From Erwinia sp. E602 (GTDB lineage Bacteria > Pseudomonadota > Gammaproteobacteria > Enterobacterales > Enterobacteriaceae), in the NCBI RefSeq assembly GCF_018141005.1, contig NZ_CP046582.1, positions 4,030,001 through 4,094,000 of the forward strand: DNA of 64,000 nt. Reading direction: 5' to 3'. The notes beneath the pieces were generated by a model. It did no database searches. It was not told the origin of the DNA and was given only the letters and a program-made list of their open reading frames with translations. The position numbers and the translations under genes were made by a program. Positions 24,049-27,328 of the stretch are shown one piece after another. Numbering within the stretch: position 1 is the first letter of the stretch; the number at the start of each line of letters is the position of its first letter.

Positions 24049-24957
<909 letters not shown>

Positions 24958-25059
24958 TTAGAATTTTACGCCAGCGCGCAATCATTATCAGTAAAACGAA
25001 TTTTTGTAAGGATTCAGAGGGTAAGCGAGTCGGTGCCCGGTTGGCTTGCCTCTTCCGGG

Positions 25060-25256
25060 ATCGTGTTGCTGGTGGGTTCAGTGATTACGTCGTGATTGCG
25101 TCGCTGGTGGGCTCTGTGATCGTGTCGCTGCCGAACCCGGAGGCTGGGTCGGCCGTTGGCGGCAGATCGCCGGGTCGCCGTGACCCCATCCATGGGGGCT
25201 CGGACGGCGCGTCCATGCGCCGTACGCCCGGCTAACCTGTCCACCAACGGCCTCCC
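25060..25256. repeat. GC-rich palindromic intergenic sequence upstream of dapB
   Basis: This stretch holds many short inverted repeats: GGGTCGCCGTGACCC, CCATCCATGG, GGACGGCGCGTCC and others, preceded by two 35-base-spaced copies of GCTGGTGGG (25068 and 25103). Its base composition and folding differ from the AT-rich DNA on either side. It looks like a mobile or structured intergenic repeat rather than a gene. A 93-residue reading frame crosses it but has no convincing start. I cannot name the repeat family. Confidence 0.45.
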
Positions 25257-25314
25257 CTCCCAGCTATTGCGTAGCTTTAGTAAAAACCATGCACAGGCGG
25301 AGTTATGAGGATTT

Positions 25315-25343
25315 TGAAGTCTTGAAGACTTGAAGACTTGAAG
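25315..25343. repeat. Short tandem repeat, 8-base unit
   Basis: Three consecutive copies of an eight-base unit (CTTGAAGA / ACTTGAAG) near 25315-25343, directly before the long inverted repeat. Slippage-prone simple repeat with no obvious coding role. Confidence 0.6.
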
Positions 25344-25377
25344 GGTTTAAGGCAGCAACACAGAAAATTACAGGCAA

Positions 25378-25475
25378 TCGGGGTTTATCCGGATAAGCGG
25401 ACCTTCGGGCACAGGGACGTGCCCGACAGAGCCCAGGGATGTTACTGGCGTGTCCGCGTTCCGGATAAACCCCGA
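25378..25475. repeat. Long nested inverted repeat (possible structured RNA or cruciform)
   Basis: Perfect 16-base arms TCGGGGTTTATCCGGA (25378-25393) and TCCGGATAAACCCCGA (25460-25475). Pairing continues inwards with GCGGAC (25397-25402) against GTCCGC (25452-25457), and the top holds a further 7-base hairpin CGGGCAC / GTGCCCG (25406-25425). The whole 98-base unit would fold into one long branched stem-loop. No U run follows, so it is not a standard terminator. Confidence 0.75.
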
Positions 25476-25497
25476 TAAGCCAGGTGCCCGAATCCAT

Positions 25498-25640
25498 AGC
25501 GACCCGGCTCCAAAGCCACGCCCCAATACGCCAGCCTCCTGAATCCGCAGCGACCCGGCCCTAAAGCCACGCCCGGACAGGCCAGACTCCGAGCCCACAG
25601 CGACCCGCCCCAAAACCACGCCCATTAAACCCGAAACACA
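25498..25640. repeat. Tandem repeat, about 51-base unit, 2.8 copies
   Basis: Units start at 25498, 25549 and 25599, each opening with AGCGACCCG and containing AAAGCCACGCCC (AAAACCACGCCC in the last). Copies differ at several positions, so this is an ageing array. It reads as a 17-residue repeat on the minus strand, but without a good ribosome-binding site, and I do not call a gene. Confidence 0.75.
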
Positions 25641-25760: not shown

Positions 25761-25943
25761 ATGAAGGAAAAGATCTTAATCTTCATACTCTGTTTTTTAA
25801 TTTACTTTTTCACGGTCTGGCTGGTTATGTCAGTTTTTAAGGACACCTTCCTGCCAGGAAGCACTATCGTGCAGGGGCTGGTTTTTTCTTTCGCTATTTT
25901 AATAGCGTTCAGGGTAAAAAAATCATTCTCTGGTAAACACTAA
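25761..25943 (+). CDS. Small two-helix membrane protein, candidate microcin immunity protein
   Basis: 60 residues with two hydrophobic stretches (about 4-26 and 33-53) joined by a short polar loop and ending in a basic tail (RVKKSFSGKH). GGAG lies six bases before the ATG, so translation is well supported. It has no named homologue that I recognise. It sits 16 bases upstream of a gene with a class II microcin leader on the same strand. In the microcin V operon a small two-helix immunity gene (cvi) likewise lies directly before the toxin gene (cvaC), so an immunity role is the natural inference. The gene is AT-rich, unlike nearby core genes, which points to horizontal transfer. Confidence 0.7.
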   Translation: MKEKILIFILCFLIYFFTVWLVMSVFKDTFLPGSTIVQGLVFSFAILIAFRVKKSFSGKH

Positions 25944-25959
25944 TTAAGGAAAATCTGTA

Positions 25960-26274
25960 ATGAAAACACTTTCATTTGTTAACTATCGGTTGGTCAGTGG
26001 CGCAGGTGACACATTTAGCGGTGCCGCTCTGGCCGGAGCAGTCGCTGGCGGAGCCGTTACCGGAGGCCTGGCAGGAGCCGCAATAGGTGGTGTAGGCGCA
26101 CTGCCTGGTGCGCTGGGTGGCGCAGCGCTGGCTGGTGCAGGTTATACAGCGAATCAACTTATTCAGGGATTTCTGGACAATGGCCAGTCGTGGCCAGCAG
26201 GCGCAGACTTCAGTTCTTTCGAAATTCTAAATGGATTTCTGAAAAAATCAAAAGAAGGTGGCGGGCCTCTTTGA
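25960..26274 (+). CDS. Putative class II microcin (colicin V/microcin L-like) precursor
   Basis: 104 residues. The N-terminus, MKTLSFVNYRLVSGAGD, matches the short leader of class II microcins: about 15 residues ending in SGG or SGA, and VSGAGD is also the processing-site sequence of microcin L. Cleavage after residue 15 would release an 89-residue peptide. It begins with a glycine/alanine-rich hydrophobic segment (about residues 20-60, repeated GxxxG spacing such as AGAVAGGAVTGGLAGAA), as in microcin V, followed by a polar tail. There are no cysteines, and no serine-rich C-terminal siderophore-attachment tail, so it is unlike class IIb microcins. AAGGA precedes the ATG. No CvaA/CvaB-type exporter is in the window. 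Confidence 0.7.
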   Translation: MKTLSFVNYRLVSGAGDTFSGAALAGAVAGGAVTGGLAGAAIGGVGALPGALGGAALAGAGYTANQLIQGFLDNGQSWPAGADFSSFEILNGFLKKSKEGGGPL

Positions 26275-26334
26275 AATTCAGGCACAGGTCGACGGTTTTA
26301 CTCGTCGAAACCGATAAAAAAGCATCACCGCTTT

Positions 26335-26374
26335 ATTGCCCGGCAAGCGAACGCTGCCGGGCAATATTTATTTC
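26335..26374. terminator. Terminator between the microcin candidate and ispH
   Basis: ATTGCCCGGCA (26335-26345), nine-base loop, TGCCGGGCAAT (26355-26365), then ATTTATTTCTT. An 11-pair stem placed between two convergent genes; the tail is only moderately T-rich on either strand. Confidence 0.65.
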
Positions 26375-27328
26375 TTAGTCAACCTGACGCACGTCGACGC
26401 GCAGCTCTTTCGGTACTTCGAATACGATGTTCTCTTCGCGGCCGATCAGCTCAATCGCTTCCACGCCGCCCAGCTCGTTCAGACGCTGGATCACCTGCTG
26501 CACCAGCACGTCCGGTGCTGAAGCCCCGGCGGTGACGCCCACGCACTTCGCGCCCCTGACCCACTCCTCCTGAATATCTTCAGCGGAGTCGATCAGCCGC
26601 GCCAGCTTACCGGCACGCTGTGCCAGCTCCGCCAGACGGTTAGAGTTAGAGGAGTTCTTCGAACCGACCACCAGCACCACGTCGGCATCCTTCGCCAGCA
26701 CCCGCACCGCTTCCTGACGGTTGGTGGTGGCGTAACAGATATCGTCTTTTCGTGGCCCGACAATCTTCGGGAAACGGGCGCGCAGAGCATCGATCACCTC
26801 GTAGGTGTCGTCCACCGACAGCGTGGTCTGCGTCATAAAGCACAGGTTATTCTCATCCTTAACCTGCAGCTTCCACACGTCAGCCGGCTGCTCCACCAGA
26901 TACATCCCCCCTTTCGGGTTATTGTACTGGCCCATGGTGCCCTCCACCTCCGGATGCCCGGCGTGACCGATCAGGATCGCTTCGGTCCCCTTACGGCTGG
27001 CGCGCGCCACCTCCATATGCACCTTGGTCACCAGCGGACAGGTGGCATCAAACAGCATGGTCAGATCGCGGGATCTGGCTTCGGCCCGCACCGCCTGCGA
27101 CACGCCGTGTGCCGAAAAGATCAGGATCGAGCCGTCCGGTACTTCGCTAATCTCTTCGATAAAGATCGCTCCGCGCTCGCGCAGGCTGTTCACCACATAG
27201 CGGTTATGCACCACTTCATGGCGCACGTAGATCGGTGCGCCATACATCTCCAGCGCACGCTCCACGATGCTGATGGCACGATCGACCCCAGCGCAGAAAC
27301 CGCGCGGGTTAGCCAGCATGATCTGCAT
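26375..27328 (-). CDS. ispH: 4-hydroxy-3-methylbut-2-enyl diphosphate reductase IspH
   Basis: Iron-sulfur enzyme for the last step of the MEP isoprenoid pathway, making IPP and DMAPP. The three cluster-binding cysteines are present in GFCAGVDRA (near residue 12), [11 protein letters not shown] (near 96) and [10 protein letters not shown] (near 197). Other family blocks are [10 protein letters not shown] and [14 protein letters not shown]. 317 residues (E. coli: 316). It overlaps the end of fkpB by 20 bases, so it is probably the distal gene of the ribF-ileS-lspA-fkpB-ispH run. Confidence 0.97.

What the first reader, a model, noticed from the sequence alone, without database searches (positions are those of the whole stretch)
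25761..26274. Orphan microcin/immunity pair with a microcin L-type processing site
The 104-residue product has a 15-residue leader ending VSGAGD, which is the same processing-site sequence as microcin L. Its mature part starts glycine/alanine-rich like microcin V. The gene before it encodes a 60-residue, two-helix membrane protein, the usual form and position of an immunity protein. There are no cysteines and no serine-rich siderophore tail, so it would be a class IIa-like peptide without the usual disulfide. It has no dedicated exporter nearby. It may be a new narrow-spectrum bacteriocin of this lineage.
Basis: partly seen in the sequence, partly recalled or inferred. Interest (0 to 1): 0.82.

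Follow-up and report, generated by a model that had tools for sequence, protein, structure and literature searches.

The report
Exporter-less microcin and immunity gene pair
Two small neighbouring genes in an Erwinia-type genome most likely encode a secreted peptide that kills related bacteria and the membrane protein that protects its maker, lying far from the export machinery such peptides need, in a chromosomal spot where some related species carry other such peptides.

Summary
25761-25943 (+) encodes a 60-aa two-helix membrane protein; 25960-26274 (+) encodes a 104-aa, 23% glycine, cysteine-free precursor with a 15-residue leader ending VSGA. No curated family reaches its cut-off, but comparative evidence supports a class II microcin/immunity pair. 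Relatives share leader and glycine-rich core, and in other genera the homologous pair lies beside a C39 exporter, an adaptor and tailoring genes. In 37 congeneric genomes the immunity profile finds the same three genomes as the precursor (one weak fourth precursor match discounted), adjacent each time; the core shows protein-level constraint. The C-terminal tail differs between lineages, as in modular microcins.

The genome has three C39 exporters with intact catalytic residues, none within 600 kb. One (64% identical to the exporter beside a probable Serratia homologue) has a classical double-glycine peptide next to it and is the best candidate for export in trans.

Killing, processing and export are untested. 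The leader deviates at -8 and -7; decay is the main rival. New member of a known kind, unusual setting.

The parts
25761..25943 (+). Candidate immunity protein, 60 aa, two predicted transmembrane helices
   Evidence: ORF; AlphaFold2 two helices, pLDDT 80; profile relatives adjacent to the same kind of precursor in G016, G031, G288, G353, G410, solitary in G305
25946..25951 (+). Ribosome-binding site of the precursor gene (AAGGAA, 8 nt before ATG)
   Evidence: sequence
25960..26274 (+). Class II microcin-type precursor, 104 aa
   Evidence: ORF; homologues beside C39 exporters in other genera
25960..26004 (+). Double-glycine-type leader MKTLSFVNYRLVSGA (15 aa)
   Evidence: -12 L, -7 Y, -4 V, -2 G, -1 A; the usual Glu at -8 is Asn
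26014..26175 (+). Conserved glycine-rich core (residues 19-72), the presumed toxic module
   Evidence: alignments A1/A3; differences at codon positions 1/2/3 of 0.22/0.17/0.70 against G016
26176..26271 (+). Lineage-specific C-terminal tail (residues 73-104), the presumed uptake module; no Cys, no Ser/Gly-rich end
26336..26364 (.). GC-rich hairpin between the convergent precursor and ispH genes, likely shared terminator
   Evidence: located; stretch 26270-26380 folds at z = -4.6; not listed by the terminator scan
24049..24909 (-). dapB, one border of the variable interval
   Evidence: ORF, name from its sequence and the neighbouring carAB; its upstream side aligns with 27 of 30 congeneric intervals compared, over 48-139 nt
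26375..27328 (-). ispH, the other border of the variable interval
   Evidence: 37 of 37 genomes of the genus carry it; annotated ispH in matching records

Best explanation
The pair is a class II microcin precursor with its inner-membrane immunity protein, carried as an exporter-less cassette between dapB and ispH. Inferred working: the leader is read and cut after GA by a C39 exporter encoded elsewhere, most likely the one of L010 (C2 about 2.306-2.309 Mb), working with its HlyD-type adaptor and a TolC-type channel. The 89-aa peptide is released, enters related bacteria through an outer-membrane receptor recognised by its lineage-specific tail, and its glycine-rich core damages an inner-membrane target. 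The 60-aa protein sits in the producer's inner membrane and blocks this. Shown: the genes, leader and core homology, linkage of the two genes, exporter association in other genera, intact exporters in this genome, protein-level constraint on the core. Inferred: cleavage, export in trans, killing, receptor, target, immunity.
For: The homologous precursor with a two-helix gene directly upstream lies beside a C39 exporter and a HlyD-type adaptor in L029/L031/L064 and L030. L030 also holds HlyC-type acyltransferase, enterochelin-esterase and glycosyltransferase genes. The L029 layout matches the S. marcescens microcin locus of PMC13101503 (sections 5, 7, 8 read). Immunity profile and precursor in the same 3 of 37 congeners, adjacent. 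Leader motif in 58 of 70 family hits. Codon-position differences 0.22/0.17/0.70 over the core against G016. Three exporters with intact triad; L010's is 64% identical to that of G288 and sits next to a classical leader peptide.
Against: No exporter near the pair. Leader has Asn at -8 and Tyr at -7, where 9 of the 11 leaders I compared have Glu at -8 and the ten others have Leu/Ile/Val at -7. No family reaches its cut-off: MccV E = 1.9 on the precursor, DUF6789 E = 0.001 on the 60-mer. DUF6861 matches 11 of 11 rows weakly, best 7.1e-5. No sigma-70-like promoter on the + strand and no Fur-type box. The immunity proteins are only 24-29% identical to the window's, and one relative (P0010) carries a source name of a drug/metabolite-transporter-like protein. 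G305 has an immunity-like gene without a precursor match. The structure model of the precursor is too poor to use, pLDDT 52.
Confidence: 0.74

Rival explanations
1. A decaying relic: the pair was acquired from an exporter-linked microcin locus, lost its exporter, and now drifts; frames are still open but the leader is losing its recognition residues.
For: Leader deviation at -8/-7. In congener G031, which has no C39 match, the same pair looks broken: no canonical leader, the frame leaves the family after the core, and the immunity-like frame is 50 aa from a TTG. No clear promoter.
Against: Both frames open, core constrained at codon positions 1-2 (although part of that constraint may lie on the other lineage), good ribosome-binding site, three exporters present. 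The exporter-linked L030 precursor also lacks Glu at -8.
Confidence: 0.15
2. The pair is kept for its immunity gene: it protects the cell from the microcin of relatives or competitors, and the peptide itself is of little use.
For: A solitary immunity-like gene exists in G305, a genome without C39 match and without precursor match.
Against: Then the precursor core should not stay constrained; in 3 of 3 congeners both genes are found together.
Confidence: 0.05
3. A double-glycine peptide that is not a bacteriocin (signal peptide), or a glycine-zipper membrane protein whose leader is accidental.
For: Weak matches to glycine-zipper and DUF6861 models across the family.
Against: Leader and core occur together in 58 of 70 hits; neighbours in other genera are microcin-type exporter and tailoring genes; the adjacent membrane gene is inherited with it.
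Confidence: 0.06

Closest known systems
Class II microcin cluster of Serratia marcescens (SM017/SM027/SM051 locus, PMC13101503; outline, sections 5, 7, 8 and passages read)
   Same: Homologous precursor and two-helix gene in L029/L031/L064, whose layout (exporter and adaptor divergent, NRPS-like and HlyC-like genes) matches the described locus. Which SM number corresponds was not resolved; sequences are in supplements out of reach.
   Different: The window pair has no exporter or modification genes beside it and another C-terminal tail.
Erwinia/Pantoea class IIa hybrid microcin candidates (MccE/MccP, PMC13174018; passages and section 18 read)
   Same: Same genus by inference, double-glycine leader, modular core and tail, some inhibiting E. 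coli.
   Different: The six discussed there resemble MccH47, have two Cys and mostly lie near exporter genes; the window peptide has no Cys and lies alone. Whether it is in their unread candidate list is unknown.
Class IIb microcins (E492, G492, H47, I47, M)
   Same: The L030 relative and P0022 share the core and end in a Ser/Gly-rich tail; L030 sits among HlyC/esterase/glycosyltransferase genes.
   Different: The window tail has no Ser/Gly-rich end. The only HlyC hit of the genome is elsewhere, next to a gene I read as TpsB-like.
Microcin V / microcin L (class IIa)
   Same: GA-type cleavage site (microcin L site recalled), Gly/Ala-rich start; weak MccV Pfam match in 7 of 11 family rows, best 3.5e-4.
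   Different: No Cys, so no disulfide; own exporter cluster absent. Tails were not compared, known sequences not fetched.

Membership tests
Class II microcin | 15-20 residue N-terminal leader ending GG/GA/GS with hydrophobic -4, -7, -12 | tested here: met
   MKTLSFVNYRLVSGA; -12 L, -7 Y (borderline), -4 V; conserved in relatives
Class II microcin | Small (about 5-10 kDa) glycine-rich mature peptide | tested here: met
   8.2 kDa, 25.8% Gly; 12-26% Gly reported for known ones (PMC11494933, passages)
Class II microcin | Adjacent small inner-membrane immunity protein | tested here: met
   60 aa, two predicted helices, linked in 3 of 3 congeners; protection itself untested
Class II microcin | C39 exporter with Cys/His/Asp triad and membrane fusion protein in the genome | tested here: met
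   three exporters, triad intact; an adaptor-sized ORF upstream in each, HlyD domains checked by Pfam for the L010 adaptor only
Class II microcin | Exporter genes close to precursor and immunity gene (usual layout) | tested here: not met
   nearest C39 place more than 600 kb away; precedent for microcins at other genomic places: SM020 and SM064 in PMC13101503
Class II microcin | TolC outer-membrane channel | not tested
   TolC itself was not searched; an outer-membrane efflux protein stands beside the L008 exporter
Class II microcin | Antibacterial activity relieved by the immunity protein | not testable with these tools
   needs a bench assay
Class IIb (siderophore) microcin | Ser/Gly-rich C-terminal motif | tested here: not met
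   ends KKSKEGGGPL
Class IIb (siderophore) microcin | MceI-type acyltransferase (HlyC family) with the cluster | tested here: not met
   one HlyC match in the genome, about 41 kb beyond the window end, beside a gene read as TpsB-like from its sequence, no Pfam run
Class IIa microcin | No modification except optional disulfide | tested here: inconclusive
   no Cys, no tailoring gene seen beside it; chemistry not measured

The most novel reading that the evidence does not exclude
The dapB-ispH interval of Erwinia is a recurrent docking site for exporter-less microcin genes: different species carry unrelated or tail-swapped double-glycine precursors there, all relying on exporters encoded elsewhere, so that microcin repertoires turn over by swapping single small cassettes instead of whole clusters.
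Probability: 0.45. Interest if true: 0.62.

Novelty: new member of a known kind. Interest (0 to 1): 0.47.

Why it matters
Published searches lean on nearness to the exporter: PMC11494933 (passages) uses it as a criterion and suggests that future searches could be restricted to ORFs near exporter genes. Pairs like this one would then be missed. If exporters serve orphan cassettes in trans, the number of microcins per genome is underestimated, and the question left open in PMC13101503 (passages: which of several secretion systems serves which microcin) becomes directly testable in a genome with three exporters, one of them with a neighbouring double-glycine peptide. Erwinia species are plant-associated, so the peptide may matter in competition on plants.

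Tried and rejected
Pfam, NCBIfam, PHROGs and PADLOC on both window proteins: nothing above a curated cut-off in the first two (best: DUF6789 E = 0.001 on the 60-mer) and no match at E 0.01 in the last two. The PDB profile search gave only weak matches that look like low-complexity glycine/alanine stretches, disregarded. AlphaFold2 of the precursor was too uncertain for a fold search, none was run. Both genome-contig scans found no relative. Plasmid collection: no match for either window gene nor for P0022; phage collection: no match for the precursor, the 60-mer was not tried there. Fur box: none in the window.

Rows dropped before counting: one search listed a fourth congener, G035 (E = 0.0025, inside a 750-codon frame), taken as a glycine-rich chance match. 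One search listed 10 further genomes (E 9e-6 to 1e-3): three were looked at (G187, G180, G291) and hold other double-glycine precursors, the other seven were not looked at (three lie in frames over 300 codons). One search listed weak genomes too; of these only G205, G197 and G407 were looked at.

Full report
WHAT IS THERE. Two ORFs on the + strand lie in the gap between dapB (24049-24909, -) and ispH (26375-27328, -): 60 aa at 25761-25943 and 104 aa at 25960-26274. They are 16 nt apart and the second has AAGGAA 8 nt before its ATG. A hairpin (26336-26364) separates the convergent precursor and ispH genes. GC is 37% for the first gene and 54% for the second, against 60% for the window. No + strand promoter-like site and no Fur-type box was found.

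NAME OF THE GENOME. P0021, annotated as Erwinia piriflorinigrans, has the G016 sequence and sits on a contig of 235,416 bases, the length of G016:C17. So the genus of 37 held genomes is taken to be Erwinia (inference). The genus of G288, G410 and G424 is probably Serratia: a Serratia ureilytica protein, P0057, shares the N-terminal stretch of its precursor.

THE PRECURSOR. It has a 15-residue leader MKTLSFVNYRLVSGA and an 89-aa mature part of 8.2 kDa with 25.8% Gly and no Cys. Families recognise it poorly (MccV E = 1.9). A database search gave six relatives; a profile of six sequences gave 70 (only the 7,996 candidates sharing most words were scored; some hits are profile rows themselves). Of these 70, 58 have, within the first 60 residues, a leader with hydrophobic -12 and -4, hydrophobic or Tyr/Cys -7 and small residues at -2/-1; shuffled N-termini give 13.0 on average, at most 22 in 300 rounds. 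Precomputed Pfam domains of the 70: Bacteriocin_IIc 16, MccV 1, DUF6861 5 (one of them shared with Bacteriocin_IIc), Gly-zipper 1, the others none. Between window and G016 the core differs at 22%, 17% and 70% of first, second and third codon positions, so the protein has been under constraint, though the test cannot say on which branch. The window leader deviates: Asn at -8 and Tyr at -7, while 9 of the 11 leaders I compared have Glu at -8 and the ten others have Leu, Ile or Val at -7. The exporter-linked L030 precursor also lacks Glu at -8.

THE NEIGHBOUR. The 60-aa protein is predicted as two helices (pLDDT 80). A profile of five such proteins found, in 37 congeners, G000, G016 and G031; G000 and G016 were in the profile, G031 was not. 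The precursor search found the same three, plus G035 at E = 0.0025 inside a 750-codon frame, which I discount. The two genes are adjacent in all three genomes. In 392 genomes of the family the immunity profile found G000, G288, G353, G410 and G305. G305 is a case against strict pairing: a solitary immunity-like gene with no precursor match and no C39 match. Identity to the window protein is only 24-29% for the five-row alignment.

EXPORTER-LINKED RELATIVES. In G288, G410 and G424 the homologous precursor with its two-helix gene directly upstream lies in one stretch with a C39-type exporter ORF and an adaptor-sized ORF, a second double-glycine precursor with a small membrane gene, and NRPS-like genes followed by an HlyC-like gene (the C39 match was checked for G288, HlyC and one NRPS protein of L029, the rest by size and sequence likeness). 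This is the layout that PMC13101503 reports for the SM027/SM017/SM051 microcins of Serratia marcescens, a study that showed activity for 17 of 40 tested microcins (sections 5, 7, 8 read). I could not match SM numbers to these sequences, so I do not claim that this relative is among the active ones. In G353 the homologue ends in SSATSSSGGGS and lies in one stretch with a C39 exporter, an adaptor-sized ORF, and HlyC-type, enterochelin-esterase and glycosyltransferase genes, as class IIb microcins do. In 30 genomes of the G288 genus 6 match, one of them (G205) only over part; in 6 genomes of the G353 genus, 1.

MODULAR TAIL. Leader and core are shared while the end differs: Ser/Gly-rich in L030 and P0022, DSN-ended in L029, Cys-ended in G016 and P0001, none of these in the window. 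In class II microcins studied so far the C-terminus governs uptake and the N-terminal part the target (PMC13174018 section 18; PMC10233263 passages). A different tail suggests a different receptor; this is inference.

EXPORT. The genome has three C39 exporters, at about 1.48, 2.31 and 4.72 Mb of C2, all with the Cys-His-Asp triad. The one in L009 lies with a XyeA triceptide precursor and its XyeB maturase. L008's stands with an outer-membrane efflux gene. L010's is 64% identical to the G288 exporter and 74% to another of G353, and a peptide with the classical leader IRELTETEIDDVAGG lies just upstream of its adaptor; that peptide matches no microcin model. L010's exporter is the best candidate for export in trans. 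Class II microcin exporters are described as promiscuous (PMC10233263 passages). In the genus 32 of 37 genomes have a C39 match, so having an exporter is no strong correlate. G031 has none, and its pair looks broken: no canonical leader, the frame leaves the family after the core, the immunity-like frame is 50 aa from a TTG.

THE SITE. The pair lies at three different places in three congeners: dapB-ispH here, beside what looks like a CRISPR array in G016, near a metK-like gene in G031. The dapB-ispH interval was read in all 37 genomes. In 31 it is under 1,600 nt (one cut by a contig end): 16 are 200-430 nt and 15 are 743-1,507 nt; G031 has 2,796 nt; in five no dapB was found within 5 kb. The dapB promoter side aligns with the window's in 27 of 30 short intervals compared, and no other stretch scored clearly above shuffles (best local match only). 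Of the 31 short intervals, 5 hold a double-glycine precursor ORF: G000, G011, G017, G028, G029. G028 and G029 show the same protein and G011's resembles it, so beyond the window the independent cases are about two. G009 has a remnant resembling the G011 core. Markov surrogates of the 31 intervals gave a mean of 0.285 intervals with a match, at most 2, in 200 rounds. Real sequence as control: 125,077 nt beyond the intervals gave none; 62,520 nt of the window outside gave three chance-like matches; seven other loci (118,007 nt) gave six, of which two are the precursors of L011 and L075 and four look like chance. The pattern was widened after the first hits, so the test is not blind; the other precursors have textbook leaders. 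Family support for them is weak: MccV E = 0.0039, 0.81 and 0.54. No clear immunity gene stands beside the G011, G028 and G029 precursors. A relative of the G011 precursor (60% over 70 aa) lies between serC and ycaO of a Klebsiella aerogenes record, with no exporter annotated in 16 kb. Five papers were read in part and six searches made; I saw no mention of this site in them. The supplementary lists of PMC13174018 and PMC9746304 were not readable, so the window peptide may be listed there.

VERDICT. A real microcin/immunity-type pair, probably functional, separated from its exporter; killing and export remain to be shown. As an object it is a new member of a known kind. The recurring use of one chromosomal interval by exporter-less microcin-like genes is the part that would interest a specialist.

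Noticed in passing
L103/L137 (G011), L104/L138 (G029), L108/L142 (G028), L134 (G017): The dapB-ispH interval of congeners holds other double-glycine precursors without exporter in the stretch; G009 (L148) has a remnant.
   Followed up: partly
L124 (G031), dapB-ispH interval: Two paralogous secreted-looking proteins with an ADP-ribosyltransferase-like look (impression from sequence, no search); described only.
   Followed up: no
L117 (G004), L119 (G020), dapB-ispH interval: Two-gene cargo that looks like an amidase plus a small secreted protein (impression from sequence, no family search).
   Followed up: no
L009 5422-11315: XyeA triceptide precursor, XyeB radical SAM maturase, aspartic protease-like protein, adaptor-sized ORF and C39 exporter in the window's genome.
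   Followed up: partly
L011 6300-9666: In G016 the pair lies between a gene that looks like cas1 and a CRISPR-like repeat array (read from repeated ORF motifs, no CRISPR tool).
   Followed up: no
L075 6644-6889: G016 also has an exporter-linked precursor with two Cys near its end, resembling the description of the hybrid microcins of PMC13174018.
   Followed up: partly
L029, L031, L064, L032: Several precursors of the probable Serratia genomes end in SN or DSN; in L029, L031 and L064 NRPS-like and HlyC-like genes lie beside them, hinting at an uncharacterised C-terminal modification.
   Followed up: no
window 25056-25615: GC-rich degenerate repeats (three copies of 27 nt at 25488-25615, spacing 50-51; two of 35 nt at 25056-25125) between dapB and the pair.
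   Followed up: no
L062 6830-7003 (G305): Solitary immunity-like two-helix gene in a stretch with phage-like genes (impression), no precursor or C39 match in that genome.
   Followed up: partly
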